From Salinimicrobium tongyeongense (GTDB lineage Bacteria; Bacteroidota; Bacteroidia; Flavobacteriales; Flavobacteriaceae), in the NCBI RefSeq assembly GCF_026109735.1, contig NZ_CP069620.1:1488001-1552000 (forward strand): a stretch of DNA of 64,000 bases, written 5' to 3'. Positions 10,870 through 61,793 of this stretch are shown piece by piece. The position numbers were made by a program, and so were the translations under genes. Within the stretch, counting starts at the first letter, position 1. Each line of letters starts with the position of its first letter. The notes under the pieces were generated by a model. It was not told where the DNA came from, made no database searches, and was given only the letters and a program-made list of their open reading frames with translations.

Positions 10870-10894
10870 GGTTAAAAATGCCCTTTTTGGGACC
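10870..10894. repeat. dispersed palindrome, degenerate copy
   Basis: Core AAAATGCCCTTTT (10875-10887, one mismatch) flanked by GGT and ACC. It lies in the 349-bp divergent gap (10694-11042) between the regulator and the large outer-membrane protein, where apart from the regulator's -7 box at 10700-10707 I see no other convincing element. Confidence 0.5.
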
Positions 10895-11042
10895 TGCAGG
10901 TTAAAATTCTGTTAGTAAAAGCTTTTAAAGCTGTTACAAAGAGGTTAAATATCAGCAGAATGGCAGTAATTTTTCAGAAATTGATGCTTTGGGTAAAGCA
11001 CTGACTTTCCCTTTTAGAGAATTTTTTAACTCACGAGTTTTT

Positions 11043-14000
11043 ATGACCCCTAAAATACCCATTCCTCATCTCCTTTTGAGATTTCTATATACATATTCTT
11101 TTTTCACTGTTTTTTGCCTGTTTTCTTCTTTTGCACAGCAGCAAGAGCAGGATAGCGCAGCTGTTAGCCGGGTTTTTTACATACTTTCAAACACGGGTCC
11201 CGGTGCCGGTATGGCTACCCTGCCCCTGCTTGAGAGCGTTGCAGGAGATTCTCAAAATGACATTTCTGCCACACTCATTTTACCCGGAAACATCACTCCT
11301 TCTCACGGCTTTCCGGAAGTTGAACCGCTAAGGCAAAACACCAGGGAATTTCTGCGGAAGAACCTGCTGCAGCCTTTAGAAAATTTCAACGGAAATATCA
11401 TTTTCACCCCCGGAATCAACGAATGGACAGGAGGATCTCCTGAAAACCTCGACGACCTGGAAAGTTTTTTGCAAGACAACAGCAACGGCAAGTTTCTGCC
11501 CAACGACGGCTGCCCTGTAGAAGACATAGAAATTAATGATGAAGTGGCCTTGATTACCGTAGATTCCCAGTGGTACCTGCAAGACTGGGATCGCAGCAGT
11601 GACTATAATGTAGAATGTGATATACGTACAAAAGAAAGGTTCTTCATTGAAGTAAAAGATGCCTTAAAAGACAATTTCGGAAAGGTAAAAATCATCGCGG
11701 TTCATCATCCGGTGCTTACGAGTTCACAAACTGGTGTTTTCAACAAGATTTTCCCGTTTTCGCGTCAGGATTTTCAGAATCCGCTTTACCGGGAGTTAAG
11801 GAGGAGGCTGGAAACCCTTGCCAGCCAGTTTGACGATGTCATTTTTGTTTCGGGAAATGATGCTAACCTGCAATACCTGCACAACGGCAGGAATCCGCAA
11901 ATCATTAGTGCCACTGCCGCAGGTACAACGCCTGCAAAAACTACCAAAGATGCCCATTTTGCTTCGGAAGCACCAGGATATGCAAAACTCAGGGTCTTCA
12001 AAAATGGCACTTCAAACCTCGAATTTTTCAGCCTAAACCCTTCAGGGAAAACACTGCTCTTCAGCAAAAAAATTCCGCAGGAAAGAAATACAAAAATTGA
12101 GCTGGAAGGAGCAGGCTGGGAAAAGCTCGGAAAAACCCATTCGGCTTCGATCTACTCTCCCGAAGAGACTCAGAAAAGCAACTTTTACCGCTTCCTGTGG
12201 GGAGATCGTTACCGCAATGTTTACAACACCAAAATTGAAGTTCCGGTCTTACTGCTCGACACGATTTACGGCGGGCTCACCCCCATAAAAGAAGGCGGAG
12301 GCCAGCAATCCCGTTCCATCAGGTTCATCAATGAAGATGATCATGAGTACACTTTAAGGGCGCTTAGAAAAAGTGCGACTCAATATATTCAGGCCGATCT
12401 TGCGCCAACCACTTTTATTGGTGACCGCATTGATAACAGTTACCCTCAGCGGCTCGTGCTCGATTATTTTACCACCTCGCAGCCTTACGCAAAGTTTGCG
12501 CTTGATAATTTTGCTGAAGCCCTTGACCTGCCGCACATAAAACCCCAGATCTACTACGTGCCACGCCAGCCTGCGCTCGAGATCCACAACGATGAATACG
12601 GCGATGAGCTCTATGAGTTACAGGCGCACGCCGGCAGCGAGAACAAATCTTTTGCGCAATTTGAGGAGCCACAGGACATTTTAAGCAGTTTTGACCTTCT
12701 TGAAGAGCTTCGGGAAGACCCGCAGGCCAGGGTGAACCAGGAAGAATACATTAAAGCCCGGCTCTTTGATATGCTCATTGGAGATTGGGACCGCCACCAG
12801 GACAACTGGCGCTGGGCCGAATATGAAGACGAAACGGGAAAAACCTACACCCCCATTCCGCGAGACCGCGATCAGGCTTTTTCGAAGTATGATGGTCCGC
12901 TCATCAGGCTAATAAAACTGGCGGAACCACGGCTTAGAAAAATGCAGACTTATGATGAAGATATAGACAGCATTAAATGGTTCAACTGGTCTGGCTACCC
13001 GCTAGACCTACAGGTACTCTACCAAACCCGCTGGGAGCAGTGGGAAGAGCAGGTAAAACTGATCCAAAATACCATAACCAACGAGCAGATTCAGCAGGCT
13101 TTTGCCGAATTACCTGCGGCAGCACAGGATCACACTATTGAAGAGATCAAACAAAACCTGAAGAAACGCAGGGCAAATATGATGGGCATTGCCCGTAATT
13201 ATTATGAACACCTTCAGAAGTTTAAGGTCATTACCGGAACCGATGAAGATGAAAATTTTGAGATCATAAGACAGAACGACGGGAAAACGGAAATCATTCA
13301 GCAAAGTGAAGGTGAAGAGATCTTCAGGCAAACTTATAATTCCGAAGAAACTGAAGATATCTGGATCTACGGAATGGCGGGAGACGACCGCTTTACAACT
13401 TCAGGAGAGGGAGATAACCTCATCAACATCAAAGTTCTTGGCGGCCCCGGGAAAGACACTTATAATTTTCAGAATAAAAGAAAGGTCAAGCTCTACGACT
13501 TCAAAAGTGCTGAAAATGAGATTTTACAACCCGGTTCCCGAAAGCTCCTCGTAAATTCTTACAAGATCAACAATTTCAATTACAAAAAATTCAAGTACAA
13601 CATCTTTAAAACCGTTCCCTACGTTAATTTTGAGACCGATGCCGGTTTCACCCTGGGCGCCGAAGCTATCTGGACAAAATACGGGCTGGTGAACAATCCA
13701 TTCCAGGCCCGGCACAAACTTTTGGCCAATTATTACTTCGCTACCAGGGGTTTTGCGGTACGCTACCACGGGGAATTTGCACATTTGTTCTACAACTGGA
13801 ACTTTGGGTTTACCGCCCGTTACACCAGCCCAAATTACGGGATGAATTATTTTGGGGCAGGTAGCGAAACCATTTATGACAAAGATGAAGTTGACCGGGA
13901 TTACAACCGGCTGAAGATCCAAAAATGGCATTTTTCGCCCGCCCTTATCTGGCGTAATGACGCTGGCAGCGTGTTCGATATTGGTCTCAGCGTAGATGCC

Positions 14001-14642
14001 TATAAAGTAGAATATGAAGCTGCTACTTACCTGGGGGAAATATTAACTCCCGAAAATGACATTTTTGACCAGCAGTTTTACGCAGGTGCCGAAGCCAATT
14101 ACAGGTTCTACAGTAAGAACAGCAGCGCGTTCCCAAGACTGGGATCGGATATTCGCCTTACTACGGGCTATAAAAAAAGTATAGACGAGGCCAAAAACGA
14201 GCTGGGTTACCTTGAACCTTCAGTTTCCCTTAATTATCCCATAAGTTCGAACGGGTACATGGTATTTGCCACAAAACTGGGTGGCGAAGTGATCTTTGGA
14301 GAAAATTATGAGATCTACCATGCCGCCACCATTGGCGGGAACCGAAGCTTGCGGGGATACCGCAACCACAGGTTTAACGGAAAACAGGCATTCTACCACA
14401 GTACCGATGTACGATCGGCTTTGGGGGTGTGGGAAAATAATTTCCTTCCCTTCATTTACGGGCTAACGGCAGGTTTTGATTATGGCCGGGTCTGGGTTCC
14501 GGAGGAAGATTCCCACAAATGGCACAGCAACTACGGCGGCTCGATATGGATAAGCGCCGGTCTTGCCCTTACGGGGAATATTGGCCTGTACCACGGGGGT
14601 GACGGCAATAGGCTGAGCCTGATGCTCAACTTCAAATATTAG
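11043..14642 (+). CDS. metallophosphoesterase-like / kinase-like / beta-barrel fusion protein
   Basis: 1199 residues from the ATG at 11043, which begins a signal peptide (FFTVFCLFSSFAQ); a TTG at 10989 is possible but less likely. Residues about 35-340 resemble a calcineurin-like phosphoesterase (FTPGINEW, IIAVHHPVL, FVSGNDANLQYL), though some usual metal ligands are not obvious. Residues about 380-720 contain GDWDRHQDNW (Asp581, Asp583, His585, Asn588) and PRDRDQAF (Asp608, Asp610), a layout like the catalytic and metal-binding loops of atypical secreted kinases (HipA/Fam20-like). The C-terminal 400 residues look like an Omp85/surface-antigen barrel (GGNRSLRGYRNHRFNG) ending in a terminal aromatic. 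Annotation pipelines may call such proteins metallophosphoesterase. It stands alone, divergent from the regulator. The kinase assignment is inference. Confidence 0.7.
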   Translation: MTPKIPIPHLLLRFLYTYSFFTVFCLFSSFAQQQEQDSAAVSRVFYILSNTGPGAGMATLPLLESVAGDSQNDISATLILPGNITPSHGFPEVEPLRQNTREFLRKNLLQPLENFNGNIIFTPGINEWTGGSPENLDDLESFLQDNSNGKFLPNDGCPVEDIEINDEVALITVDSQWYLQDWDRSSDYNVECDIRTKERFFIEVKDALKDNFGKVKIIAVHHPVLTSSQTGVFNKIFPFSRQDFQNPLYRELRRRLETLASQFDDVIFVSGNDANLQYLHNGRNPQIISATAAGTTPAKTTKDAHFASEAPGYAKLRVFKNGTSNLEFFSLNPSGKTLLFSKKIPQERNTKIELEGAGWEKLGKTHSASIYSPEETQKSNFYRFLWGDRYRNVYNTKIEVPVLLLDTIYGGLTPIKEGGGQQSRSIRFINEDDHEYTLRALRKSATQYIQADLAPTTFIGDRIDNSYPQRLVLDYFTTSQPYAKFALDNFAEALDLPHIKPQIYYVPRQPALEIHNDEYGDELYELQAHAGSENKSFAQFEEPQDILSSFDLLEELREDPQARVNQEEYIKARLFDMLIGDWDRHQDNWRWAEYEDETGKTYTPIPRDRDQAFSKYDGPLIRLIKLAEPRLRKMQTYDEDIDSIKWFNWSGYPLDLQVLYQTRWEQWEEQVKLIQNTITNEQIQQAFAELPAAAQDHTIEEIKQNLKKRRANMMGIARNYYEHLQKFKVITGTDEDENFEIIRQNDGKTEIIQQSEGEEIFRQTYNSEETEDIWIYGMAGDDRFTTSGEGDNLINIKVLGGPGKDTYNFQNKRKVKLYDFKSAENEILQPGSRKLLVNSYKINNFNYKKFKYNIFKTVPYVNFETDAGFTLGAEAIWTKYGLVNNPFQARHKLLANYYFATRGFAVRYHGEFAHLFYNWNFGFTARYTSPNYGMNYFGAGSETIYDKDEVDRDYNRLKIQKWHFSPALIWRNDAGSVFDIGLSVDAYKVEYEAATYLGEILTPENDIFDQQFYAGAEANYRFYSKNSSAFPRLGSDIRLTTGYKKSIDEAKNELGYLEPSVSLNYPISSNGYMVFATKLGGEVIFGENYEIYHAATIGGNRSLRGYRNHRFNGKQAFYHSTDVRSALGVWENNFLPFIYGLTAGFDYGRVWVPEEDSHKWHSNYGGSIWISAGLALTGNIGLYHGGDGNRLSLMLNFKY
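11254..11266. repeat. dispersed palindrome, one-mismatch copy in CDS
   Basis: AAAATGACATTTC, one mismatch to the core, inside the fusion-protein gene. Could be chance. Confidence 0.3.
13922..13934. repeat. dispersed palindrome, exact core in CDS
   Basis: AAAATGGCATTTT inside the barrel region of the fusion protein, read as KWHF. Confidence 0.7.
14053..14065. repeat. dispersed palindrome, exact core in CDS
   Basis: AAAATGACATTTT followed by TGAC, inside the fusion-protein gene, read as ENDIFD. It lies 131 bp after the previous copy. Confidence 0.7.
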
Positions 14643-14815: not shown

Positions 14816-14828
14816 AAAATGTCATTTT
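14816..14828. repeat. dispersed palindrome, exact core
   Basis: AAAATGTCATTTT between two convergent genes, directly next to the SYLF terminator; outer bases GTC and GAC are partly complementary. Confidence 0.7.
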
Positions 14829-15570: not shown

Positions 15571-16869
15571 CTATTGGGTTATACCGGACATGGCCATTTG
15601 CCTGAATTTCCAGGCGGTTTCATCCTGCGTGGTACCCTGGGTTTGTTTCATGATGATGCCAATGAGGTTCTCTTTAGGGTCGGCAAAATACTGGGTATTG
15701 AAATAACCGCCCCAGTCAAAAGTACCCTCACTCCCTAAACCACCGGCACGAACTCCTTCTTTATTGAGAACTGAAAATGCCAGCCCATAATCCTTGTGCT
15801 GATCTTTGTATAGCTCTTTTGCCTGGTCTTCCATAATAAGTGCTACAGTAGTTTTGCTTAAGATCCTGTTCCCGTCAAGTTCACCCCCATTTAGATACAT
15901 CTGGAGAAAGCGCGCGTAGTCTTTTGCTGTACTGGTAAGCCCTGCCCCGCCAGAAAAAAAGGCTTTTGCTCCTTTCACAGGATAATCGGGGTCATAAAAG
16001 GTCACAGGAAAGTTCTGCCATTCCCCATCTACCTGGTGCTGCACACTAACCAGCCGGTCTTTTTTCTCATCGCCCATGTAAAACTGAGTGTCGTCCATTC
16101 CAAGAGGATCAAAGATCCTTTCCTTTAAAAACACATCAAACGGCTGCCCCGAAATTTTTTCGACAAAATACCCCAGCACATCAAGGCTTTCACCATAATG
16201 CCATTCTTCCCCGGGAACTGCATAAAGAGGCAGGCCAGCAAGCTTTTTCACATTTTCGGCGATGCTTATCTCCTTTGTGGTATAGAGATCAACCACCCCG
16301 GCCTTTACATATATCTTTTTAATCTTTTCATCAGAATCAATCCTACCATATCCAAGGCCCGAGGTATGCGTGAGCAAATGGCGAATGGTGATTTCTTTCC
16401 CGGCAGGCCTGGTTGTGTAGGTGGTGTCTTCAGCTTTGAATTCAGCTATGATCTTAGGGTCTTTGAATTCAGGAATATATTTTGAAATGGGGTCGTCTAA
16501 CCTGAATTTTCCTTCTTCCCAAAGCATCATCACCGCAGTAGAAGTAATTGCCTTGGTTTGGGATGCAATCCTGAAAATGTCATTTTTCTTCAATACTTTT
16601 CCATTGGCATCGGCTGTTCCAAAGCTTTTGTGATAAACAATCTGGCCGTTTTTTGCGATGAGTACAACTGCGCCCGGGATCTCTTTTTCTGAAATTGCTT
16701 CAGAGATCATCCTGTCAATTTGATCAAGCCTTTCCCCGTTTATACCGATTTTTTCTTCGGAAGTATGAGCATCGGCAGTACGGTCAAAAGAGTTTTGGGC
16801 CGATAGTATATTGACCATCAGCAGAAAGGCTCCAATAATTTTAGCCTGAAGTGTAGGTTTTGATAACAT
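15571..16869 (-). CDS. serine hydrolase, class C beta-lactamase/esterase family
   Basis: 432 residues with a signal peptide (IIGAFLLMVNILSAQ). The family's nucleophile motif SxxK is present (ASQTKAITSTAVMMLWEEGK), with the second catalytic Tyr in WHYGESLDVLGYF and a C-terminal Gly-rich segment (GGLGSEGTFDWGGYF) where KTG or HxG normally stands. Such periplasmic proteins are mostly esterases or D-amino peptidases rather than true beta-lactamases. It lies 97 bp after the GH3 gene on the same strand, so it may be cotranscribed, but a palindromic repeat sits in the gap. The specific substrate is unknown. Confidence 0.85.
   Translation of the reverse strand: MLSKPTLQAKIIGAFLLMVNILSAQNSFDRTADAHTSEEKIGINGERLDQIDRMISEAISEKEIPGAVVLIAKNGQIVYHKSFGTADANGKVLKKNDIFRIASQTKAITSTAVMMLWEEGKFRLDDPISKYIPEFKDPKIIAEFKAEDTTYTTRPAGKEITIRHLLTHTSGLGYGRIDSDEKIKKIYVKAGVVDLYTTKEISIAENVKKLAGLPLYAVPGEEWHYGESLDVLGYFVEKISGQPFDVFLKERIFDPLGMDDTQFYMGDEKKDRLVSVQHQVDGEWQNFPVTFYDPDYPVKGAKAFFSGGAGLTSTAKDYARFLQMYLNGGELDGNRILSKTTVALIMEDQAKELYKDQHKDYGLAFSVLNKEGVRAGGLGSEGTFDWGGYFNTQYFADPKENLIGIIMKQTQGTTQDETAWKFRQMAMSGITQ
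16574..16586. repeat. dispersed palindrome, exact core in CDS
   Basis: AAAATGTCATTTT inside the serine hydrolase gene, in a segment encoding KNDIFRIAS that is conserved in the family, so this copy could be coincidental. Confidence 0.45.
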
Positions 16870-16923: not shown

Positions 16924-16950
16924 GGTTCCTAAAATGCCATTTTTGGAACC
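16924..16950. repeat. dispersed palindrome with GGTTCC/GGAACC arms
   Basis: Exact core AAAATGCCATTTT (16931-16943) flanked symmetrically by GGTTCC (16924-16929) and GGAACC (16945-16950). The arms differ from those of other copies yet remain complementary. It lies between the GH3 and serine hydrolase genes. Confidence 0.85.
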
Positions 16951-21552: not shown

Positions 21553-24021
21553 CTATTCTAAATTTATGGTGGTGGTAGCTTTCTGAAGACCATTTGCAGT
21601 AGCGGTCACTTCTACCGGCCCGGCTTCTTTCCCGGCACGGATAACCACCAGGACTTTTCCATTCAAAGCTGAATGTGAAGTTCCTTTAAAAGATTCATGG
21701 CTCGTAGGGTCTCCGCTGGCAACTGCTTCTATTTTTCCACCGCCTGTGACCTCAAAATGAACAACATTATTTGCTCGGGGTGCTATAATCCCGTTTTCAT
21801 CTGTGATATTTACGGTAATAAATGACAGGTCCTGCCCGTCGGCTTTAATGCTGCTTCGGTCGGGCTGAATAGTCAATTTTGCAGGCTCTCCGGCAGTTCT
21901 TACTTCCTTTTCAAGAACAACCTTTCCGTCTTTTTTGGAAACAGCTCGTAAAATGCCCTTTTTGAAAGGAAAGCGCCACATCACATGCAGGTCATCCCCC
22001 TGCTTTTTCTTTGTGCCCATTGTTTCTCCGTTCAGGAAGAGCTCAACCTCATCGGCCTTGTTGTAATAGGCCCAGACATCCACAATTTGCCCTTCTTCCC
22101 AGTTCCAATGCGGTAGTATATGTAAAACAGGCTCATTGGTCCATTCACTTTTGTACATGTAGTAAGTATCCTTCGGAAAACCTGCGAGATCTACAATTCC
22201 GAAGTAAGAACTTCTTGAAGGCCAGCCGTATGGCGTTGGCTCTCCAAGATAATCAAACCCGGTCCAGATGTAAAACCCTGATAGAAACTCGTGTTTTTTG
22301 ATAATTTTCCAGGTAGTTTCATGAGTAGAGCCCCAGGGTGTTCTCACCTGGTCAAAAGCTGAAATCGTATGATCTGGGTTTCCACCATCAAAAGGAATAT
22401 CCCAGCGCACCGGCCAGATCTTTGTAGTATCCGAAGGAAATTCGTAAAATCCTCGTGTAGCCAGCGCAGAAGTAGTTTCGGTGGCTATAAAAGGGGGTTG
22501 GGGAAAGTTTACCTGGTGCTTTGGCCAGGTTTGGTGGGCGTAATTATACCCAATGAGATCTAAAGCTCCGGACCCCGCTAGGGCATTAGGCTGTTGTGGC
22601 TCATCAAACTGTAAAGTTACATCGTCTTCATTGGTGTGTACTGGCGGATTCATTCCGGCGGTAACTGGGCGGGTAGGATCAAATTCTTTGGTGATCCTGG
22701 CCAGTTCCCTTCCTATTTCGGCACCTCGCTCACTCCACTGCTCTGGCACCTCATTGCCAATACTCCAGATAAAAATACTCGGATGGTTGCGGTCGCGAAG
22801 AAGCATGTCTTTCACATCCCGCTCGTGCCATTCATCCCAAAAATTGCTGTAATCGTTTGCAGTTTTGGCATTTTCCCACATGTCAAAAGATTCGGCCATC
22901 ACAATAAAACCCATTTCATCTGTTAGTTCCAGAAGTTCGGGTGCAGGCGGATTATGGGCGGTTCTAATTCCGTTTACGCCCATTTCCTTCATGATCTCCA
23001 GCTGTCGCTCTATGGCCCTCTTATTCACTGCGGCACCTAAAGGCCCAAGATCATGATGGTTGTTCACCCCTTTGATCTTCAGCTGTTCCCCATTCAGAAT
23101 AAAACCTTTTTCAAGATCGAATGTAAAATCCCTGATCCCAAACTTAGTGGTGTATTCATCGACAACTTCCCCGCCAACCTTTATTCTTGTTACTACGGAA
23201 TATAGCTGCGGATCTTCTGTAGACCACAACTGAGGTTGTAAAACCTTAATTTGCTGAGTTACTTCGGAAGTATCCTGCGCCTGAATTTCAAATTCTGATG
23301 CAACCAAATTCACCTGCTGATCCCTGTAAATCAAAGAGGTCTCTAAAATGCCATTTTTGACACTCCTGTATTGGTTTACAAGCCTTGCCTCAACCTGAAT
23401 TAAAGCACTGTCTCTGGATACTTGTGGCGTAGTAACAAAAGTTCCCCATAGAGGCACATGCAGCTTATCGGTTTTGGTGAGCCAAACATTTCGATAAATC
23501 CCGGAACCTGAATACCAGCGGGAATTTGGTTGATGAGCATTATTGACCTTTACCAGAATTTCATTCGGCTCATTTCCATAGTGGAGAAAAAGGGTGAGAT
23601 CATATTGGAACCCAATATAGCCGTTGGGCCTGTTCCCTAAATATTTCCCGTTGATCCAGACTTTGCTGTCCTGGTAAACGCCGTCAAAAGTTACGGCAGT
23701 TAGTCTGGTACTGTCTTTTGCAGCAAGGCTAAATTTTTTTTTGTACCAGCCAAGACCTCCGGGTAAAGCACCGCCTCCCACCCCTGCAGGGTGTTTGGGG
23801 CTGAATTCTCCTTCAATACTCCAATCGTGCGGCACATTTAGAGTTCTCCATTGAGCTCCTGAAGAAGCCATTTTTGAGGAATCACCAAGAAAGAACTGCC
23901 AGTCTTCATTGAAGGAAATCTTTCTTGGTGCGTGAGAAACTTCAGAAGAAGATTTTTTACAGGAATAAAAAAAGCTGGAAAGGAGAATTAGTGCAGATAA
24001 AATATAGCTTTTCTGAAGCAT
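21553..24021 (-). CDS. glycoside hydrolase family 2 beta-galactosidase-like lipoprotein
   Basis: 822 residues from the ATG at 24021, chosen because it begins a lipoprotein signal (SALILLSSFFYSCKK); 27 further in-frame residues upstream are unlikely. GH2 sugar-binding, immunoglobulin-like and barrel domains are followed by a DUF4982-like domain and a Big1-type domain (LTIQPDRSSIKADGQDLSFI). Catalytic residues are visible: acid/base Glu424 in WSIGNEVPE and nucleophile Glu515 in IATETTSA. GH2 enzymes remove beta-linked galactose, mannose or glucuronate; the exact sugar is not fixed by these motifs. It is first of the GH2-GH97-GH3 series. Three near or exact copies of the dispersed palindrome region lie in or beside this series. 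Confidence 0.92.
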   Translation of the reverse strand: MLQKSYILSALILLSSFFYSCKKSSSEVSHAPRKISFNEDWQFFLGDSSKMASSGAQWRTLNVPHDWSIEGEFSPKHPAGVGGGALPGGLGWYKKKFSLAAKDSTRLTAVTFDGVYQDSKVWINGKYLGNRPNGYIGFQYDLTLFLHYGNEPNEILVKVNNAHQPNSRWYSGSGIYRNVWLTKTDKLHVPLWGTFVTTPQVSRDSALIQVEARLVNQYRSVKNGILETSLIYRDQQVNLVASEFEIQAQDTSEVTQQIKVLQPQLWSTEDPQLYSVVTRIKVGGEVVDEYTTKFGIRDFTFDLEKGFILNGEQLKIKGVNNHHDLGPLGAAVNKRAIERQLEIMKEMGVNGIRTAHNPPAPELLELTDEMGFIVMAESFDMWENAKTANDYSNFWDEWHERDVKDMLLRDRNHPSIFIWSIGNEVPEQWSERGAEIGRELARITKEFDPTRPVTAGMNPPVHTNEDDVTLQFDEPQQPNALAGSGALDLIGYNYAHQTWPKHQVNFPQPPFIATETTSALATRGFYEFPSDTTKIWPVRWDIPFDGGNPDHTISAFDQVRTPWGSTHETTWKIIKKHEFLSGFYIWTGFDYLGEPTPYGWPSRSSYFGIVDLAGFPKDTYYMYKSEWTNEPVLHILPHWNWEEGQIVDVWAYYNKADEVELFLNGETMGTKKKQGDDLHVMWRFPFKKGILRAVSKKDGKVVLEKEVRTAGEPAKLTIQPDRSSIKADGQDLSFITVNITDENGIIAPRANNVVHFEVTGGGKIEAVASGDPTSHESFKGTSHSALNGKVLVVIRAGKEAGPVEVTATANGLQKATTTINLE
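21950..21962. repeat. dispersed palindrome, degenerate copy in CDS
   Basis: AAAATGCCCTTTT, one mismatch, inside the GH2 gene. Confidence 0.4.
23345..23357. repeat. dispersed palindrome, exact core in CDS
   Basis: AAAATGCCATTTT followed by TGACAC, inside the GH2 gene. On the coding strand it reads KNGIL, a third reading frame compared with the KWHF and KMAF copies. Confidence 0.75.
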
Positions 24022-24112
24022 GTATTTGAAAGGAATAATTAAACCCATCGCCGACCAATTACTGTAAGTCACTACACCTAAGCCTAAGGATATGAATATC
24101 AACCGATACCAG

Positions 24113-28271: not shown

Positions 28272-28296
28272 GGTCAAAAATGGCATTTTTTGACAC
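28272..28296. repeat. dispersed palindrome, exact core
   Basis: Core AAAATGGCATTTT (28277-28289) flanked by GGTC and TGACAC, directly after the stop of the small lipoprotein. A degenerate second copy (AAAATGTCCATTTT) follows at 28313-28326. Confidence 0.8.
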
Positions 28297-28983: not shown

Positions 28984-29034
28984 GCTGCAGAAAATCCCAT
29001 TTTTGACACTTCAGGTCGAAAGGTTTTCTGCAGC
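28984..29034 (-). terminator. long hairpin terminator containing a repeat copy
   Basis: GCTGCAGAAAA (28984-28994) pairs perfectly with TTTTCTGCAGC (29024-29034); on the minus strand seven Ts follow. It ends the M28 peptidase transcript and may act on the convergent HD gene. A second weak hairpin (TCGGG...CCCGA, 29040-29063) faces the plus strand. Confidence 0.7.
28991..29009. repeat. dispersed palindrome, degenerate copy
   Basis: AAAATCCCATTTT followed by TGACAC; one core mismatch. It lies within the terminator hairpin. Confidence 0.5.
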
Positions 29035-33961: not shown

Positions 33962-33967
33962 GTTTTG

Positions 33968-34041: not shown

Positions 34042-34087
34042 ATTTCAGTATGTCCAGAGTTTTTGAAAAGCTTTCTGCTGCTTTTTG

Positions 34088-34691: not shown

Positions 34692-34714
34692 TCAAAAATG
34701 CCATTTTTGACACC
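34691..34714. repeat. dispersed palindrome, full copy between convergent genes
   Basis: GTC + A + core AAAATGCCATTTT (34695-34707) + T + GAC, then ACC. It fills the whole 24-bp gap between two convergent stop codons and is nearly perfectly symmetrical. Confidence 0.85.
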
Positions 34715-34715: not shown

Positions 34716-36176
34716 CTAGATTCCGCGGTTACAACCAGCATAGTTGATCTCAGACTGGTACTGCTTCAGGTAATCGATTAGGTATTCCGCAGTAGTCTTT
34801 TCATAAGTACTGGCGGGCTGCTGAAAATCTTCCTGGTACACGTTAGACAAATAGTCATTCATGGCCACGCTAATTTCCGAAGCATCAGGTAACAGGCTGC
34901 CATCGGGGGCGACAAGCTCCAGCCTTCCATCCCTTAATTCCATCGCTATTCCTGAATACGCCAAAGAAGGGGCGTAAGGTGCATTGAGGAAAGCTTCGAG
35001 CTGCTCAACGGTCATTTTAAAGGAATCGAGGCCGTTTTGAAAAGGATCTATGGTGTACAGGTCAAAAGGCGTTATACTCCCAAAATCAAGACTGGCCCTT
35101 ACTCCGCCATAATTCTGAAAAACCACATCGGCACCGGTAATTGCCCGCAGGGCATCGGTATAGAAACAGGCAGTTTCGGCACGGTTGTGATCCTGTAAAG
35201 ATGTACCCAATTCTTCAAAGAATTCGGGGCGGTTATTGTATTCAGCGATCAATGCTTCGATGGCGGCATCGGTTTCAGTCTGCTTATTAAGCTCAATAAG
35301 TTCGTATTCATAAGAGATCAGCTCGCCATTTTCTACGCTAAGGCTCAATTTTGTGAGCAGTTCAAGGTCTGAACCCGATTGCACCATATACCGCCCCTTC
35401 ACCTGCTCATTGTACACCGAGTGGTTATGGCCACCCACCACCAGGTCAACAAAATCGTGCTGTTGTAAGATCATCCTGTCGCCGTCTTTCCCGTAGTGGG
35501 TAAGCGCCACCACAAGATCGGCAGCCATTACTTCAGAATCATTGCGGTACTTTTGCATGGCCTCTACGCCTTCAGTAAATTCGAGGCCTTTTAACTTCTT
35601 CGGATGAGACAGGGGTTTATTATTGGCCGAAGAAGTCTCAACCACACTTATAAAGGCGATCTCAAAACCATCTTTTTCAATGATCACTTTTCCCTGCGGA
35701 AGCGTAAAACCCGAATCGCTGCTTTCAATATTGGCACACAGGAAAGGAAAACCGGCCTCGAGCATTCTCTCTTGAAGCACTTCCTGCCCGTAATCAAACT
35801 CATGGTTGCCCAGGGCGGTGACATCCATACCGGCCTTGCCCATAAGGTCTATAATGGGAAAGCCTTTTTTGGGGTGGTAATCTACCACAGGGTTTCCTGA
35901 AAAAATATCACCTCCCGAAACAAAGAACACCTGCGATTCTGTTTCTTTTTCTTTATCGATGATGGCTTTTATCCTTCCGAAGTTCTGGATCTTGCCGTGA
36001 GGATCATTGATGGTGTAGATCACGATGCTTTCGGCTTTAGGTGCTGCTTCAGGCGGAACAGGTTTTTCTGAATTTGCAGCATCATCTGAAGAGCAGGAAA
36101 GCACCACAAAAATACCTGCCAAAAATGCCATTTTCCGAAGGTATTCCGAAGCAAAAGAAAGAGAAGGAGTTTTCAT
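34716..36176 (-). CDS. 5'-nucleotidase / UshA-like metallophosphoesterase lipoprotein
   Basis: 486 residues with a lipobox (FVVLSCSSDD). The calcineurin-like domain shows the metal-site motifs YTINDPHGK, VSGGDIFSG, ALGNHEFDYG, VVALTHYGKDG and LVVGGHNHSVY. The C-terminal 5'-nucleotidase domain (about 330-480) includes YGGVRASLDFG and DPFQNGLDSF. It would hydrolyse nucleotides or nucleotide sugars in the periplasm to salvage phosphate and nucleosides. Asp replaces the usual first His-containing pattern only slightly (NDPHG versus NDxHG), so activity is expected. A copy of the palindrome lies in its signal-peptide region. Confidence 0.92.
   Translation of the reverse strand: MKTPSLSFASEYLRKMAFLAGIFVVLSCSSDDAANSEKPVPPEAAPKAESIVIYTINDPHGKIQNFGRIKAIIDKEKETESQVFFVSGGDIFSGNPVVDYHPKKGFPIIDLMGKAGMDVTALGNHEFDYGQEVLQERMLEAGFPFLCANIESSDSGFTLPQGKVIIEKDGFEIAFISVVETSSANNKPLSHPKKLKGLEFTEGVEAMQKYRNDSEVMAADLVVALTHYGKDGDRMILQQHDFVDLVVGGHNHSVYNEQVKGRYMVQSGSDLELLTKLSLSVENGELISYEYELIELNKQTETDAAIEALIAEYNNRPEFFEELGTSLQDHNRAETACFYTDALRAITGADVVFQNYGGVRASLDFGSITPFDLYTIDPFQNGLDSFKMTVEQLEAFLNAPYAPSLAYSGIAMELRDGRLELVAPDGSLLPDASEISVAMNDYLSNVYQEDFQQPASTYEKTTAEYLIDYLKQYQSEINYAGCNRGI
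36114..36134. repeat. dispersed palindrome copy in signal peptide region
   Basis: Exact core (36122-36134) plus an asymmetric extension; the 21 bp equal, in reverse orientation, 61422-61442 in an unrelated gene. Both are read as KMAFLAG. Confidence 0.75.
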
Positions 36177-37764: not shown

Positions 37765-37777
37765 AAAATGCCATTTT
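37765..37777. repeat. dispersed palindrome, exact core inside SCO promoter
   Basis: AAAATGCCATTTT ends 7 bp before the -7 box of the SCO gene, i.e. inside the promoter spacer. Confidence 0.7.
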
Positions 37778-46704: not shown

Positions 46705-46738
46705 CCTGTCGAAAATGACATTTTTGACAGGTTTTTTT
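46705..46738 (+). terminator. intrinsic terminator formed by the dispersed palindrome
   Basis: CCTGTC (46705-46710) and GACAGG (46726-46731) flank the exact core AAAATGACATTTT (46712-46724), and seven Ts follow. This copy has all the features of a rho-independent terminator, 25 bp after the bacilliredoxin stop. Confidence 0.85.
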
Positions 46739-46832: not shown

Positions 46833-47573
46833 ATGAAAACCTTCAAAAAGATCCTTTCTTACCCGCTTTCGGTAGTATTTTACATCTTCTTTTTTATCAA
46901 CCTGCTGGTTTTCCACCCCATACAGTGGCTGTGTTTTAACCTGGGAGGCTATCAGCCCCACAAAAAGAGCGTTGACGTCTTCAATTTCTTCCTGCTGCGC
47001 TGCCTTAATCTTCTCGGCACCCGCTTCAGTATAGAGAATGAATATAATCTGCCTACAGACAGGCCCTGCATCTTTGTGGCCAATCACCAGGGTATGTACG
47101 ATATTCCGCCCATTATATGGCATTTTAGAGAACATCATCCAAAATTTGTGAGCAAGAAAGAACTGGGCAGGGGAATCCCTAGTATTTCCTACAACCTGCG
47201 TCACGGCGGAAACCTTCTCATTGACCGCAAGAATGGCCGCGAGGCTTTGGTGAAAATGAGCAAATTTGCCGATTACCTCAACCAGAATAACAGATCGGCA
47301 GTTATTTTTCCTGAAGGAACCCGCAGCCGCACCGGGGCTCCCAAAAAGTTTGCAGTGCAGGGCTTGCAGCTGCTCATCAAGAAGATGCCTGAAGCCGTTA
47401 TTGTGCCCATTACCATCAACAACAGCTGGAAATTGTTTCGCTACGGAAGTTTTCCCATGGGCATTGGCGTACACCTTATGCTGAAAGTTCACGAACCGGT
47501 CTCAGCTAAATCTGACACTCCCGATGCACTCGTAGCCCAGGTGGAACGCAGCATTACCGCCGACATCATCTAA
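46833..47573 (+). CDS. plsC: 1-acyl-sn-glycerol-3-phosphate acyltransferase
   Basis: 246 residues with an N-terminal membrane segment (LSYPLSVVFYIFFFINLLVF) and the PlsC acyltransferase motifs NHQGMYD (NHxxxxD), RHGGNLLIDRKNG, FPEGTRSRTG and VVPITINNSWK (VxPVxI-like). It adds the second acyl chain of phosphatidate at the inner membrane. The next gene begins 20 bp after its stop, and a degenerate palindrome spans that gap. Confidence 0.93.
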   Translation: MKTFKKILSYPLSVVFYIFFFINLLVFHPIQWLCFNLGGYQPHKKSVDVFNFFLLRCLNLLGTRFSIENEYNLPTDRPCIFVANHQGMYDIPPIIWHFREHHPKFVSKKELGRGIPSISYNLRHGGNLLIDRKNGREALVKMSKFADYLNQNNRSAVIFPEGTRSRTGAPKKFAVQGLQLLIKKMPEAVIVPITINNSWKLFRYGSFPMGIGVHLMLKVHEPVSAKSDTPDALVAQVERSITADII

Positions 47574-47593
47574 AAATACCATTTTTGACACCT
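47573..47593. repeat. dispersed palindrome, degenerate copy
   Basis: AAAATACCATTTT followed by TGACACC; one core mismatch. It fills the gap between plsC and the HD gene and ends right before the ATG. Confidence 0.5.
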
Positions 47594-48262
47594 ATGGAAA
47601 AAGACCAGATCATTGCCCGTACTGTTGATTTTGTTAAGGAAAAATTGAAAAATGCTGAAGGCGGCCACGACTGGTTCCATATTGAACGGGTATTCAAAAA
47701 TGCCAGAATTATTGCCGCTTCCGAAGAAGTAGATGGGTTTATCGTAGCCCTTGGAGCCTTACTTCACGATATTGCCGATTCTAAATTCCACAACGGTGAT
47801 GAAACTATAGGCCCCAAAATAGCGAGGCAGTTTCTACAGGAACAACAAGTGCCCGAAGATGCTATTCTTCATGTAGAGAATATCATTAAATGGATCTCCT
47901 TTAAAGGAGGAAATGAGGCTCAGGAATTTAGCTCCCCCGAACTTGATGTAGTACAGGATGCCGATCGCCTTGACGCTCTTGGTGCCATAGGAATTGCCCG
48001 CACCTTTAACTACGGTGGCCACAAGGGCCGGCCCATCTTTGATCCGGATATAAAACCGAACCTCAATATGACCAAAGAGGAATATAAAGCTTCTTCAGCC
48101 CCCACAATAAACCATTTTTACGAAAAACTTCTCCTGCTTAAAGACAGGATGAACACGAATACGGGGAAAAAATTAGCCCAGGAACGTCATGATTTCATGG
48201 TTGGGTTTCTTGAACAGTTCTATAAAGAATGGGGACTAGCCTCTCAAAAATGGCATTTTTAG
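47594..48262 (+). CDS. HD-domain phosphohydrolase, YedJ-like
   Basis: 222 residues from the ATG at 47594 (a TTG three codons earlier lies in the repeat). HD motifs: GGHDWFHIERVFKNA, ALLHDIADSKFHNGDE and VQDADRLDALGAIGIARTF, typical of the YedJ/YpgQ group, which hydrolyse nucleotides or other phosphate esters. Its last five codons, QKWHF, and stop are made of the dispersed palindrome, and the gene overlaps the convergent radical SAM gene by 4 bp. Confidence 0.88.
   Translation: MEKDQIIARTVDFVKEKLKNAEGGHDWFHIERVFKNARIIAASEEVDGFIVALGALLHDIADSKFHNGDETIGPKIARQFLQEQQVPEDAILHVENIIKWISFKGGNEAQEFSSPELDVVQDADRLDALGAIGIARTFNYGGHKGRPIFDPDIKPNLNMTKEEYKASSAPTINHFYEKLLLLKDRMNTNTGKKLAQERHDFMVGFLEQFYKEWGLASQKWHF
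48247..48259. repeat. dispersed palindrome, exact core at gene ends
   Basis: AAAATGGCATTTT spans the end of the HD gene and touches the stop of the convergent radical SAM gene. Confidence 0.75.
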
Positions 48263-49332
48263 AACAGCTTCATCTGGCCATCTTTATACTGCTCGTGCAA
48301 ATCGCAATTTAAAACGGGGCGCTCCCTGTCTTTAAGATAAAGCTTCCGGGCAATGGCAAATTGCTGTGCCACCTGGTCGGCGATGTTGCCATCGCCCTTC
48401 ATTCGGGTTCCAAAGCGGCTGTCGTTGAGGCTTCCGCCGTGGCATTCGGCGATTTGATGCAGCACTTTATCTGCCTTTCCCGGCATGGCTTTTCGTATCC
48501 ATGAAGCAAAGATCTCACCAATGGCCCCGTTAAGCCTCACCACGGTATAACCCACGCCACAGGCACCCCTTTCTGAAATTTCTTTCACCAGCGGCAGGAT
48601 CTCGTGGCTGTTAATTGAGGGAATAATGGGCGCCATCATCACATTCACCGGAATTCCTTTGCTACTGAGCAACTCCAGGGTTTGCAGGCGCTTTTTGATG
48701 CTGGCCGTGCGAGGTTCCAGGAGTTGCCGGTTTTTTTCTTCAAGGGAAGTAATGGAAAGATTCACCCGTACCAGATTGTCTTTTGCCAGTTCCTGAAGAA
48801 TATCCAAATCCCTTTGAATAAGGGCATTTTTGGTAATTATCCCAACGGGATGCCTGTATTTTAAAAAGATTTGAAGTAACTGCCGGGTGATCTCGAGTTT
48901 ACGCTCTACCGGCTGGTAACAATCTGTATTTCCCGAAAGCACGATGGGAGCTGCTTTCCAGCTCTTGCTGCGCAGTTTGGCTTCCAGCAGCTGCGGGGCA
49001 TTGCGTTTCACCAGGATCTTCTGTTCAAAATCAAGCCCCGGCCCAAACCCCCAATACTCATGAGAATTGCGGGCATAGCAGTACACACAGCCGTGTTCGC
49101 AGCCCTGGTATGGGTTTAGAGAAAATTCCATCCCCACATCGGGGCTGGTAACTTTGTTGACTATAGTTTTTGGAAAGGTATCGAGAAAAGCCGTTTTTGA
49201 AGGCGCAGCCTCCTCTCCTTCGGCAGCACAATAGTTCAGGAAATCATCCCTCATCTGGTAAGATAAGGCGTCAAATCTGTTCTTTACCTGCTCCTGCGCT
49301 CCCCTTCCTTTGATAAAATCGTTCCCTCGCAT
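48259..49332 (-). CDS. PA0069 family radical SAM protein
   Basis: 357 residues from the ATG at 49332; an in-frame TTG nine bases earlier overlaps a -7 box (49339-49346) and is rejected. The iron-sulfur cluster motif is GCEHGCVYCYARNSHEYWG, with the spacing CxxxCxxC, and further motifs are VLSGNTDCYQPVE, GIITKNALIQRD and MMAPIIPSINSHE. Related to spore-photoproduct-lyase-like enzymes (Rv2578c/PA0069 group); the reaction is unknown. The gene follows the enoyl-CoA hydratase on the same strand but has its own promoter. Confidence 0.9.
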   Translation of the reverse strand: MRGNDFIKGRGAQEQVKNRFDALSYQMRDDFLNYCAAEGEEAAPSKTAFLDTFPKTIVNKVTSPDVGMEFSLNPYQGCEHGCVYCYARNSHEYWGFGPGLDFEQKILVKRNAPQLLEAKLRSKSWKAAPIVLSGNTDCYQPVERKLEITRQLLQIFLKYRHPVGIITKNALIQRDLDILQELAKDNLVRVNLSITSLEEKNRQLLEPRTASIKKRLQTLELLSSKGIPVNVMMAPIIPSINSHEILPLVKEISERGACGVGYTVVRLNGAIGEIFASWIRKAMPGKADKVLHQIAECHGGSLNDSRFGTRMKGDGNIADQVAQQFAIARKLYLKDRERPVLNCDLHEQYKDGQMKLF

Positions 49333-49338
49333 AAGGGA

Positions 49339-49346
49339 CAAAAATA
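49339..49346 (-). promoter_or_regulatory. -7 box TATTTTTG of the radical SAM gene
   Basis: Matches TAnnTTTG; only 6 bp separate it from the ATG, implying a nearly leaderless message. Confidence 0.5.
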
Positions 49347-52548: not shown

Positions 52549-52568
52549 GGTGTCAAAAATGGCATTAT
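52549..52568. repeat. dispersed palindrome, half-degenerate copy
   Basis: GGTGTC + AAAAATGGCATTAT: left arm and core intact, right arm decayed. It overlaps the 3' end of hemH. Confidence 0.45.
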
Positions 52569-56986: not shown

Positions 56987-57700
56987 TTGTCCGCTAAAGA
57001 AACCAGACACGAGGCTAAGAGGTCACTTTCCAGAGAGAGAGCGGGCGCAAGTGTACTTTCTACAAAAAAACTAAGCCGGGGCCAGAGAGAACTGCTCTTA
57101 AATAAAGGAATAGGCCTCGTGGAAACCGATTTTATTGCGATACAACCTTTGGATTTTGAAATTGGAACGCTCCCTGAAAATGTCATTTTTACGAGCAAAA
57201 ATTCGGTAAGGGCGATACTTCAGCATCCTCGGATAAAGGAAATTCAGCAGAAAAATATTTTTTGTGTAGGCGAAAAAACCGAAGCTTTCCTGAAACATAA
57301 CAGCTTCAGGGTGTCAAAAATGGCAAATTACGGGGCCCTTTTAGCTTCAGAAATCATTGAAAACCACAGTAAAGAAAATTTCCTGTTCTTCTGCGGAAAA
57401 AAGAGGCGTCCCGAGATCCCAGGGCGATTAAGATCGGCAGGGGTACCACTTACCGAAGTAGAAGTATACGACACCCTTTCGGTGCCCAAAAAAATAGATC
57501 GTATCTTTGAGGGAGTGCTGTTCTTTAGCCCCAGCGCAGTGCGAAGTTACTGTTCCAGAAATGATTTAAAGCAAAGCACAGCCTTTTGTATTGGGACCAC
57601 AACAGCTTCCGAAGCAAAGAATTTTACAGATAATATTGTTATCGCCAGCACACCTACTATTGAAAATGTCATTGTGCAGGTGGTAAAAACTTTTAGATAA
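56987..57700 (+). CDS. hemD: uroporphyrinogen-III synthase
   Basis: 237 residues, 12 bp after hemC. Similarity starts at VLSTKKLSRGQRELLLNKG; before it about 22 residues are not typical and no ATG is available, so the TTG at 56987 is a provisional start. Later motifs: VIFTSKNSVRAI, IFCVGEKTEAFL, VLFFSPSAVRSY and AFCIGTTTASEA. It cyclises hydroxymethylbilane to uroporphyrinogen III. Two copies of the dispersed palindrome lie within it. Confidence 0.9.
   Translation: MSAKETRHEAKRSLSRERAGASVLSTKKLSRGQRELLLNKGIGLVETDFIAIQPLDFEIGTLPENVIFTSKNSVRAILQHPRIKEIQQKNIFCVGEKTEAFLKHNSFRVSKMANYGALLASEIIENHSKENFLFFCGKKRRPEIPGRLRSAGVPLTEVEVYDTLSVPKKIDRIFEGVLFFSPSAVRSYCSRNDLKQSTAFCIGTTTASEAKNFTDNIVIASTPTIENVIVQVVKTFR
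57177..57189. repeat. dispersed palindrome, exact core in hemD
   Basis: AAAATGTCATTTT, read as ENVIF, in the segment PENVIFTSKNS that is partly conserved in HemD, so coincidence is possible. Confidence 0.5.
57311..57329. repeat. dispersed palindrome, half-degenerate copy in hemD
   Basis: GTGTCAAAAATGGCA intact on the left, right half decayed; 140 bp after the previous copy. Confidence 0.45.
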
Positions 57701-58906: not shown

Positions 58907-58912
58907 GAAAAA

Positions 58913-60921: not shown

Positions 60922-61245
60922 ATGAAGATACTGGTTCTCCTTCTTGCATTTTTCAGCATTGGAGGGGCATCGGGCTATGCTTTTAGTATTTCGGAAGTAC
61001 GTGAGGAGCACTCACCTGCTTCCGAAAAACTGGCAGCTGCCAACCCTCTTTCTGTCGCTTACCGCGAGAATTTATTCCCGGAGCTGCCCGAACTTAAAAA
61101 AGACAGTTGCCCGGCTATTTCTTCAGTAAGGTTTATTCCTCACATACTTCCCAAAAATGTCACTCAGGCGGCATATTTCAGCTTTAAAAGAGATCTTCGG
61201 AAAGATCTGAAAACCCAGCTTTTCCCCAAACATTTTTTCTGGTGA
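60922..61245 (+). CDS. small secreted protein of unknown function
   Basis: 107 residues from the ATG at 60922, which begins a signal peptide (ILVLLLAFFSIGGASGYAFS); a GTG at 60898 would add eight residues. The mature protein is short, with one Cys (LKKDSCPAISS) and a basic C-terminus (FKRDLRKDLKTQLFPKHFFW). I do not recognise a family. It starts 52 bp after hemB. Confidence 0.55.
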   Translation: MKILVLLLAFFSIGGASGYAFSISEVREEHSPASEKLAAANPLSVAYRENLFPELPELKKDSCPAISSVRFIPHILPKNVTQAAYFSFKRDLRKDLKTQLFPKHFFW

Positions 61246-61313
61246 ACGCCCTCCTGCAACTCTTGCAACCATTCAGGATAAAAATAAATCGTTCACAATA
61301 AATCATATAAAAA

Positions 61314-61793
61314 ATGGATACAGCATCCACCCTTATGGGGCTGGGACTATTAATTCTATTCATAGCTCCCGTTGGTTACCTGGTTTACAGCCAATCGCAC
61401 AAAGAAAAAAAACGAGCTCAAAAAATGGCATTTTTGGCAGGTGAAAAAGGTTACAGGCTTGATGAAACCGATAATACTTACGGCCTGTCTATAGGCCTCG
61501 ATAAAACTGCCGGAAAATTTTTCCTGCTGAAGTCTTCTAACAAAGCCGAACTTCAGGAAATAAACCTCCAGGACATCTTGAAGATCGATCTCATTAAAAT
61601 AGATGAAGATGAGAAAAGCACCCAGGTGCTCGATGAGATTAGGGAAATCTCCCTTCTGCTGAAGAGTAAGAGCAGGGAAGACAAAACCCTTATCTTTTAT
61701 GCTGAAGAGGAAGACCCGGTTACGGAGAAAAAAGACCGTCTCGACAAGGCTATAAAATGGCAAAAAAGCCTTCAGAAGTACTGTAAGGCATGA
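61314..61793 (+). CDS. single-pass membrane protein of unknown function
   Basis: 159 residues. One N-terminal helix (STLMGLGLLILFIAPVGYLVY) followed by a basic stretch, then a soluble cytoplasmic domain of about 120 residues with alternating strands and charged helices (AGKFFLLKSSNKAELQEINL, EDKTLIFYAEEEDPVTEKKD). No family recognised. The palindrome at 61422 encodes KMAFLAG near residue 37. Confidence 0.65.
   Translation: MDTASTLMGLGLLILFIAPVGYLVYSQSHKEKKRAQKMAFLAGEKGYRLDETDNTYGLSIGLDKTAGKFFLLKSSNKAELQEINLQDILKIDLIKIDEDEKSTQVLDEIREISLLLKSKSREDKTLIFYAEEEDPVTEKKDRLDKAIKWQKSLQKYCKA
61422..61442. repeat. dispersed palindrome copy in CDS
   Basis: Exact core (61422-61434) plus extension; 21 bp identical in reverse orientation to 36114-36134. 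Confidence 0.75.

What the first reader, a model, noticed from the sequence alone, without database searches (positions are those of the whole stretch)
10870..61442. Dispersed palindrome AAAATGNCATTTT, 14 exact copies
Exact cores start at 13922, 14053, 14816, 16574, 16931, 23345, 28277, 34695, 36122, 37765, 46712, 48247, 57177 and 61422; degenerate copies at 10875, 21950, 28991, 47573, 52556 and 57317. Twelve fixed positions in 64 kb predict about 0.01 occurrences even with AT bias. Outer arms vary but stay complementary: GTC/GAC, GGTTCC/GGAACC, CCTGTC/GACAGG, GGT/ACC. Complementary change at the arms suggests that symmetry itself is selected. It could be the site of an abundant DNA-binding or chromosome-organising protein, a REP-like mobile palindrome, or an RNA hairpin. 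I know no described element with this core in Flavobacteriia.
Basis: partly seen in the sequence, partly recalled or inferred. Interest (0 to 1): 0.85.

Follow-up and report, generated by a model that had tools for sequence, protein, structure and literature searches.

The report
Likely DNA-uptake tag in Salinimicrobium
A short mirror-symmetric DNA word is scattered hundreds of times through most genomes of one marine bacterial genus and is scarce or missing in the two members whose DNA-import genes are broken or were not found, which suggests that it is a self-recognition tag for taking up DNA of one's own kind.

Summary
All 14 exact AAAATGNCATTTT copies are in the window (chance 0.04); the whole 3.51-Mb genome holds 424, against 1 for the reversed pattern. 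The genome belongs to Salinimicrobium (Flavobacteriaceae). The word is abundant in 9 of 12 genus members held, sparse in G002 and G004, zero in G001, and at background in 48 genomes of 44 other genera.

The core is part of a two-fold symmetric consensus about 41 bp long with flanking A-tracts. It lies in genes and, more densely, between them. In coding alignments it differs by substitution, and it is strongly conserved in the nearest relative. The arms do not covary as RNA helices do, so it is neither a hairpin family nor a REP element.

Best explanation: a DNA-uptake sequence, like the DUS/USS of Neisseria and Haemophilus but palindromic. In G004, comEC, dprA and a ComEA-like helix-hairpin-helix gene are all pseudogenes beside intact neighbours; none of the three was found in G001 (74% complete); the other ten genomes keep them. 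Against this: the word is also sparse in G002, whose three genes look intact; only two lineages carry the link, both basal; no uptake assay or receptor exists. Confidence 0.62.

The parts
13922..13934 (.). exact site, inside ORF 10989-14642
   Evidence: core conserved in G003
14053..14065 (.). exact site, inside ORF 10989-14642
   Evidence: core conserved in G003 and G005
14816..14828 (.). exact site, intergenic
   Evidence: core NOT conserved in G003
16574..16586 (.). exact site, inside ORF 15571-16869 (-), Pfam Beta-lactamase family PF00144
   Evidence: conserved in G003
16931..16943 (.). exact site, intergenic, arms GGTTCC/GGAACC
   Evidence: core present in G003, G006 and G010 with different arm bases
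23345..23357 (.). exact site inside glycoside hydrolase family 2 ORF 21553-24102 (-)
   Evidence: core present in all four relatives aligned there: G003, G005, G006, G010
28277..28289 (.). exact site, intergenic
   Evidence: core present in G010
34695..34707 (.). exact site, intergenic, between convergent ORFs
36122..36134 (.). exact site inside 5'-nucleotidase/metallophosphatase ORF 34716-36176 (-)
   Evidence: not conserved in the one relative aligned, G005
37765..37777 (.). exact site, intergenic
   Evidence: conserved in G003, not in the other four aligned
46712..46724 (.). exact site, intergenic, with complementary arms CCTGTC/GACAGG
   Evidence: conserved in G003
48247..48259 (.). exact site at the facing ends of ORFs 47585-48262 (+) and 48259-49341 (-)
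   Evidence: core present in G003 and G008
57177..57189 (.). exact site inside hemD-like ORF 56987-57700 (+)
   Evidence: core present in G003 and G009
61422..61434 (.). exact site inside ORF 61314-61793 (+)
   Evidence: core present in G003 and G010
10875..10887 (.). degenerate site (one mismatch), matrix score 22.1
21950..21962 (.). degenerate site (one mismatch), matrix score 18.7
28991..29003 (.). degenerate site (one mismatch), matrix score 25.5
47573..47585 (.). degenerate site (one mismatch), score 18.8; an exact copy in G003
52556..52568 (.). degenerate site (one mismatch), matrix score 23.8
57317..57329 (.). degenerate site (two mismatches), matrix score 16.6

Best explanation
The palindrome is a genus-specific DNA-uptake sequence of Salinimicrobium. 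A two-fold symmetric DNA receptor of the cell's import machinery (not identified) recognises CAAAAATGNCATTTTTG with flanking A-tracts, so DNA of the own kind is taken up preferentially, passes through the ComEA-like protein and ComEC, and is recombined with the help of DprA. Because incoming fragments that carry the word replace homologous stretches that lack it, the word accumulates wherever sequence constraint allows: more between genes than inside them. Shown here: the iterated word, its symmetry, its change by substitution, its conservation, its restriction to the genus, and the three pseudogenes in G004. Inferred: that the word is recognised during uptake, the receptor, and the drive.
For: Genome-wide iteration, 424 exact against 1, restricted to the genus. 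Graded excess by mismatch number over the reversed pattern in 1.08 Mb of the genome: 127 (13 of them the array) against 0, 158 against 17, 378 against 214, 1722 against 1403, the kind of gradient described for uptake sequences (PMC1939737, passages). Sites differ by substitution in largely gapless alignments, as shown for USS (PMC1626085, passages). A-tracts flank the core, as AT-rich segments about one helical turn apart do in USS. Density per kb: convergent 1.39, tandem 1.01, divergent 0.72, coding 0.21; convergent against divergent p = 0.023, the other intergenic contrasts not significant. That is not the pattern of a promoter regulator. Core conserved in G003 at 7 of 7 coding sites (control 0.255) and 3 of 4 intergenic sites (control 0.351). 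Link to transformation: comEC, dprA and an HHH gene have open frames in 10 of 12 genomes, all of which carry the word above background (sparsely in G002; the DprA match of G009 runs into a contig end); in G004 (19 exact copies in 4.2 Mb) all three are pseudogenes and the neighbouring genes are intact, and in G001 (zero copies, 74% complete) none was found although its other HHH gene was. Among 21 other G004 genes compared none was split over frames and two showed stops, one of those also seen in six other genomes. ComEC, DprA and an HHH protein are essential for transformation in the Flavobacteriaceae member Riemerella anatipestifer (PMC8459023, passages), and R. columbina prefers its own DNA (PMC7965970, one section).
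Against: G002 has intact comEC, dprA and HHH genes but only 34 exact copies, 16 of them in four contigs of a cassette array. G004 and G001 are both basal in the tree, so the link rests on few events (Fisher 10/10 against 0/2, p = 0.015, ignoring phylogeny). Support that G004 once had the word is mixed: its exact copies are 5 times the family mean, but its one-mismatch excess (161 against 85) is no larger than in one of two other genera checked (99 against 34) and not far above the second (133 against 89). Described uptake sequences are not palindromes. Density, about 0.3 matrix sites per kb, is below the roughly one per kb of USS/DUS. No receptor was identified; no paper on Salinimicrobium transformation turned up. 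A second genus-enriched iterated palindrome, CTTCSGAAG, is not lost in G004 and has no explanation. Other genera lack the word; whether they have the three genes was not searched here.
Confidence: 0.62

Rival explanations
1. Binding site of an abundant sequence-specific nucleoid or chromosome-organising protein peculiar to Salinimicrobium, which bends or bridges DNA at several hundred to about a thousand sites.
For: Two-fold symmetric 41-bp consensus with A-tracts, no strong bias towards origin or terminus in sampled stretches, sites in genes and between them, conservation between species.
Against: Does not explain why the word is nearly gone or absent where comEC, dprA and the HHH gene are broken or not found; each of hundreds of coding sites would need its own selective value (inference). 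Unlike macrodomain or partition sites (recalled) it is not confined to one part of the chromosome.
Confidence: 0.21
2. A HIP1-like highly iterated palindrome produced or kept by a DNA methyltransferase or a biased repair process that recognises an inner part such as TGNCA.
For: Palindromic, iterated in coding DNA and clade-specific, as HIP1 and alternate HIPs are (PMC4390886, abstract and passages); a second iterated palindrome CTTCSGAAG in the same genus.
Against: HIPs are short GC-rich words; here a degenerate consensus reaches 20 bp from the centre with A-tracts, which suits a bound protein better than a methylase (inference). Methyltransferases and methylomes were not examined.
Confidence: 0.11
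3. Bidirectional intrinsic terminators or another RNA hairpin family.
For: Denser between convergent than divergent genes (1.39 against 0.72 per kb); 5 of 30 convergent sites have at least 9 of 13 complementary arm positions (0.167; between-site pairing gives 0.049), three of them all 13.
Against: 202 of 315 matrix sites lie in coding sequence; arms do not covary in general and coding sites have fewer arm matches than between-site pairing gives (3.96 against 4.35). Terminator use is probably a side role of a minority.
Confidence: 0.03
4. REP-like or MITE-like mobile palindrome, or the operator of a global transcription regulator.
For: Dispersed repeats; one 25-bp tandem array of 14 units.
Against: No insertion seen in orthologous coding alignments, where sites differ by substitutions; arms diverge, so there is no element sequence; divergent (promoter) regions are the poorest intergenic class.
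Confidence: 0.03

Closest known systems
Uptake signal sequence (USS) of Pasteurellaceae
   Same: Iterated far above chance, clade-specific, arises by substitution, flanking AT-rich tracts about one helical turn apart, graded one-off copies (PMC1626085 and PMC1939737, passages).
   Different: USS core is not a palindrome; density near one per kb against about 0.3 here; uptake bias was measured there, not here. Uptake there uses type IV pilus parts (recalled), for which no homologues were detected in the Riemerella genomes (PMC8459023, passages).
DNA uptake sequence (DUS) of Neisseriaceae
   Same: Iterated word near one copy per kb; dialects and terminator-forming copies (recalled; 'dialects' also in a cited title).
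   Different: Core not a palindrome and without flanking motifs; receptor ComP known (recalled, and a cited title), none known here.
HIP1 and alternate HIPs of cyanobacteria
   Same: Iterated palindrome, clade-specific (PMC4390886, abstract and passages).
   Different: 8 bp, GC-rich, tied to methyltransferases; here a longer AT-rich core with flanking A-tracts and a link to competence genes.
Self-DNA preference in Riemerella columbina
   Same: Flavobacteriaceae member that takes up its own DNA preferentially; ComEC, DprA and HHH are essential in its relative R. anatipestifer (PMC7965970 section 16; PMC8459023 passages).
   Different: No clear uptake word was found there; the k-mers listed are A/T-rich runs.

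Membership tests
DNA uptake sequence (DUS/USS) | Short word iterated genome-wide far above chance | tested here: met
   424 against 1; matrix sites about 0.3 per kb
DNA uptake sequence (DUS/USS) | Present in coding sequence, with excess outside genes | tested here: met
   0.21 per kb coding against 0.72-1.39 per kb intergenic
DNA uptake sequence (DUS/USS) | Arises by substitution, not insertion | tested here: met
   largely gapless alignments at the coding sites of the window; gaps only in divergent hemD and G002 alignments
DNA uptake sequence (DUS/USS) | Clade-specific dialect | tested here: met
   no comparable word found in 80 kb each of 5 other genera
DNA uptake sequence (DUS/USS) | Maintained only where the transformation machinery is intact | tested here: inconclusive
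   10 of 12 genomes have the three genes and the word; G004 three pseudogenes, G001 none of three found; but G002 has the genes with few copies, and n is small
DNA uptake sequence (DUS/USS) | DNA with the word is taken up preferentially | not testable with these tools
   needs uptake assays
DNA uptake sequence (DUS/USS) | Cognate surface receptor | not tested
   none identified
DNA uptake sequence (DUS/USS) | Non-palindromic core (true of described cases, not a definition) | tested here: not met
   core and flanks two-fold symmetric; statement on described cases from PMC1939737
REP/BIME or MITE | Intergenic, inserted as a unit, arms conserved or base-paired | tested here: not met
HIP1-like iterated palindrome | Cognate DNA methyltransferase | not tested
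   no methylome; methyltransferases not catalogued
Nucleoid-protein site | Bound in vivo by an intracellular protein | not testable with these tools
   needs pull-down or ChIP

The most novel reading that the evidence does not exclude
The first DNA-uptake word in Bacteroidota and the first palindromic one: a dimeric receptor of a pilus-less import machine reads a bent 41-bp palindrome without orientation, and integron gene cassettes carry the same word inside their recombination sites, so that cassettes travel with an uptake tag.
Probability: 0.4. Interest if true: 0.9.

Novelty: new variant of a known kind. Interest (0 to 1): 0.76.

Why it matters
How Flavobacteriaceae import DNA, and whether they choose self-DNA by sequence, is open: Riemerella transforms without detectable pilus genes and R. 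columbina prefers its own DNA, but no convincing uptake word was found there (PMC8459023 passages; PMC7965970 section 16). A word with hundreds of copies, a clear consensus, a natural series of species from 460 copies to none, and a species whose import genes are wrecked makes the question directly testable and gives bait for the missing receptor. A palindromic uptake word would also be a new kind of specificity.

Tried and rejected
RNA hairpin: rejected by the absence of general arm covariation and by coding sites. REP or insertion element: rejected by substitution alignments. Origin or terminus signal, nucleoid occlusion, macrodomain site: sampled density is similar near the skew-inferred origin region (0.153 per kb at 1.488-1.612 Mb) and at 3.15-3.51 Mb (0.133 per kb). 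Promoter regulator: divergent regions are the poorest intergenic class. Phage trait: 21 stretches in the viral collection hold the 17-base word, each fetched stretch with one 13-base core only. Variant dialect in G002: top matrix hits in 200 kb show mixed one-off cores, no new consensus. Iterated words in five other genera: none found in 80 kb each. Fixed partnership with CTTCSGAAG: pairs within 60 bp are in excess (21 against 5.8) but without fixed spacing. Literature for the motif, for uptake words in Flavobacteria, or for Salinimicrobium transformation: nothing on this word in the listings (PMC open licences only; listings and opening lines seen, not the papers, unless named; one search listed 10 of 42 papers, 10 of 75). 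Plasmid match for the G002 cassette contig: none.

Corrections made on re-checking: a first count of the intergenic classes had kept 12 tandem-array copies among the convergent sites (42, 1.94 per kb); without them it is 30, 1.39 per kb. Absence from low-GC islands was weaker than first thought: the four empty 20-kb stretches (GC 0.36-0.39) were chosen because they lie in gaps of the exact-site map; another gap stretch of GC 0.383 holds 2 matrix sites, and in 40 stretches not chosen for gaps (GC 0.408 and above) GC and site number do not correlate.

Limits: matrix sites come from a matrix trained on exact sites of the same genome; genes were called by a simple longest-ORF script; 1,083,958 of 3,509,958 bases of the own genome were read as sequence (31%), while 424 is whole-genome; the tool listed only the first positions of the 424. 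Of 127 exact copies in the first 864 kb, 12 array copies were dropped for the consensus. In one search the query labelled G002 HHH was a neighbouring transporter picked by mistake; the HHH result rests on the G000 query.
Full report
What was checked. With up to two mismatches the window holds 56 against 12.8 expected. The whole genome in which the window lies (3,509,958 bases, one contig, window at 1,488,001-1,552,000) holds 424 exact copies against 1 for the pattern read backwards.

Whose word it is. In 60 genomes searched (the own one included), the 11 other members of the same genus have 460, 225, 207, 201, 191, 164, 121, 118, 34, 19 and 0 copies; the 48 genomes of 44 other genera have 0 to 8, with reversed controls of 0 to 12. 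With CAAAATGNCATTTTG and up to two mismatches the own genome has 546 against 35, and the other genera between about half and three times their control, a mild excess of AT-rich palindromes in some. With the longer word CAAAAATGNCATTTTTG, 394 genomes of the phylum outside the genus gave one hit in one genome, against 140 in the own genome. A scan of named genomes for GTCAAAAATGNCATTTTTGAC gave 36 stretches: 33 of Salinimicrobium and one each of a Leeuwenhoekiella MAG, a Saprospiraceae MAG and a Thiohalobacter. Contig lengths identify G003 as S. profundisediminis MT39, G011 as S. nanhaiense and G008 as S. sediminilitoris. That the own genome is a Salinimicrobium follows from its being in the same genus as these. 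Salinimicrobium belongs to Flavobacteriaceae.

What it looks like. From 115 exact sites in 864 kb (12 tandem-array copies dropped) the consensus is two-fold symmetric out to about 20 bp from the centre: A-rich at 16-19 bp, then roughly RSSTNYC, then AAAAATGNCATTTTT, then the mirror image. Left and right arms match as often as the consensus alone predicts, apart from small excesses at 12 and 15 bp and deficits at 16 and 18 bp; that is a symmetric DNA-protein site, not a base-paired arm. With this matrix the genome has 31 sites per 100 kb at a score of 15 or more (array counted once; shuffled 0.3), that is roughly 1,100 per genome if the sample is typical; relatives have 29 (G003), 20, 16, 15, 14, 12.5, 11, 5 (G002) and 1.4 (G004) per 100 kb; G009 has 38 in a 10-kb sample and G001 none in 19 kb. 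The excess over the reversed pattern fades step by step with mismatches: 127 (13 in the array) against 0, 158 against 17, 378 against 214, 1722 against 1403.

Where it lies. In 1.084 Mb of the own genome, with genes called by a simple script and array copies removed, 315 matrix sites fall as 202 in coding sequence (0.21 per kb), 62 between tandem genes (1.01), 20 between divergent genes (0.72), 30 between convergent genes (1.39) and one at an edge. Convergent exceeds divergent with p = 0.023; the other intergenic contrasts are not significant. Within genes one reading frame is favoured (123, 53, 26). No exact copy lies between 550.9 and 709.7 kb; four 20-kb stretches taken in gaps of the map (215-235, 240-260, 625-645, 650-670 kb) have GC 0.36-0.39 and no matrix site, a fifth at GC 0.383 has two. 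In 40 stretches not chosen for gaps, GC and site number do not correlate. So some gaps are probably acquired islands, but this is not a general test. Sampled density does not fall near the terminus or the origin as judged from GC skew. Spacing is near random (coefficient of variation 0.90 and 1.02). Three of 30 convergent sites have fully complementary arms over 41 bp and probably also terminate transcription.

How it evolves. In alignments of the window with syntenic stretches of relatives, sites at coding positions differ by substitutions, with gaps only in divergent alignments. In G003 the core is kept at 7 of 7 coding and 3 of 4 intergenic sites, where comparable AT-rich 13-mers are kept at 0.255 and 0.351. 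In seven more distant genomes (G005-G011) 7 of 28 coding comparisons are kept against about 0.085 (p = 0.008, not corrected for shared ancestry), and 3 of 12 intergenic ones; in G002 and G004 none of 4 comparisons is kept.

The link to transformation. ComEC (PF03772) is intact (648-690 aa open frame) in 10 of 12 genus members; in G004 it survives as pieces in three frames with stops and two large gaps, between intact neighbour genes, and in G001 only a sub-threshold match was found. DprA (PF02481) has open frames of 339-393 aa in the same 10 (that of G009 runs into a contig end); in G004 it is spread over three frames with the genes on both sides intact and conserved, and in G001 it is not found. 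A ComEA-like protein of about 297 aa with helix-hairpin-helix repeats (PF12836; 'ComEA-like' is my label) is intact in the same 10; in G004 it has four in-frame stops between intact neighbours, and in G001 it is not found, although the other, larger HHH protein (711-748 aa, Tex-like by recall) is found in G001 and G004 and in 11 of 12 in all, G009 being the exception. Among 21 other G004 genes compared, none was split over frames and two showed a stop, one of these also seen in six other genomes. G009, 75% complete like G001, keeps all three. [quoted passage not shown] G004 still has 4.5 exact copies per Mb, against a mean of 0.87 in 25 other genera of the family, as expected of relics, but its one-mismatch excess (1.9 times its control) is within the range of two other genera checked (1.5 and 2.9 times).

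What speaks against. G002 keeps the three genes but has few copies, and 16 of its 34 exact copies sit in four contigs of a cassette array, 14 of them in attC-like repeats and some perhaps the same locus repeated at contig ends. The two genomes without intact genes are both basal (support of the node above G004 only 90.7/59), so the statistical support is thin (p = 0.015 without correction for phylogeny). A second iterated palindrome in the same genus is present in G004: that makes a general loss of iterated words in G004 unlikely, but it shows that iterated palindromes in this genus can have other causes. Uptake words described so far are not palindromes (PMC1939737, passages).

Reading. A DNA-uptake sequence explains the iteration in coding DNA, the preference for unconstrained places, the genus dialect, the graded one-off copies, the flanking A-tracts and the scarcity where transformation genes are wrecked. 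A nucleoid protein explains the symmetry and conservation but not the last point. I put uptake at 0.62, a nucleoid protein at 0.21, a methylation-linked palindrome at 0.11. No paper on an uptake word in Salinimicrobium or on this word was found; for Riemerella and Flavobacterium the only candidates in print that I saw are A/T-rich k-mers (PMC7965970, section 16).

Cassettes. In G002 two short AT-rich contigs (15.1 and 10.2 kb) hold rows of small ORFs, among them a HigB-family toxin followed by an HTH protein (Pfam), many of them followed by an imperfect inverted repeat of about 130 bp that resembles an integron attC site and holds the palindrome in its middle; both contigs also carry the same IS110-family transposase ORF. 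A similar repeat with the word is in a Leeuwenhoekiella MAG contig (L165). No integrase gene was looked for; that it is an integron is inference.

Noticed in passing
window 2608, 11962, 16755, 23262, 27189, 30694, 35974, 47718, 49536, 57606: A second iterated palindrome, CTTCSGAAG: 10 in the window (0.49 expected), 166 in 1.08 Mb of the genome (144 coding), 10-19 per 100 kb in nine other Salinimicrobium including G004 and G002 (5.3 in 19 kb of G001, none in 10 kb of G009), 0-2.5 in five other genera; function unknown.
   Followed up: partly
L209 1-15124 and L210 1-10187 (G002), L165 3994-4150: Integron-like cassette arrays whose attC-like repeats often hold the palindrome; cassettes include a HigB-family toxin and an HTH protein, and both G002 contigs carry an IS110 transposase ORF.
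   Followed up: partly
G000:C1:428465-428816 (L034): Tandem array of about 14 units of 25 bp, 13 of which hold the exact core, between an M16-peptidase-like gene and a phoU-like gene (gene names recalled from the translations).
   Followed up: partly
G000:C1:215001-260000, 550857-709705: Gaps in the map of exact sites; most stretches sampled there have GC 0.36-0.41 and may be acquired islands.
   Followed up: partly
G000:C1:1 and about 1.5-1.65 Mb: The contig starts at a dnaA-like gene (by eye), but GC skew and gene strand bias turn near 1.5-1.65 Mb, so the replication origin may be far from dnaA and near the window.
   Followed up: partly
G004 (L246, L258, L299): Three transformation genes broken in one Salinimicrobium species while their neighbours are intact.
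   Followed up: yes
window 33967-34041 and 34087-34161: Two tRNA-Asn genes side by side; 97-100% identical stretches in G004 and G010.
   Followed up: yes
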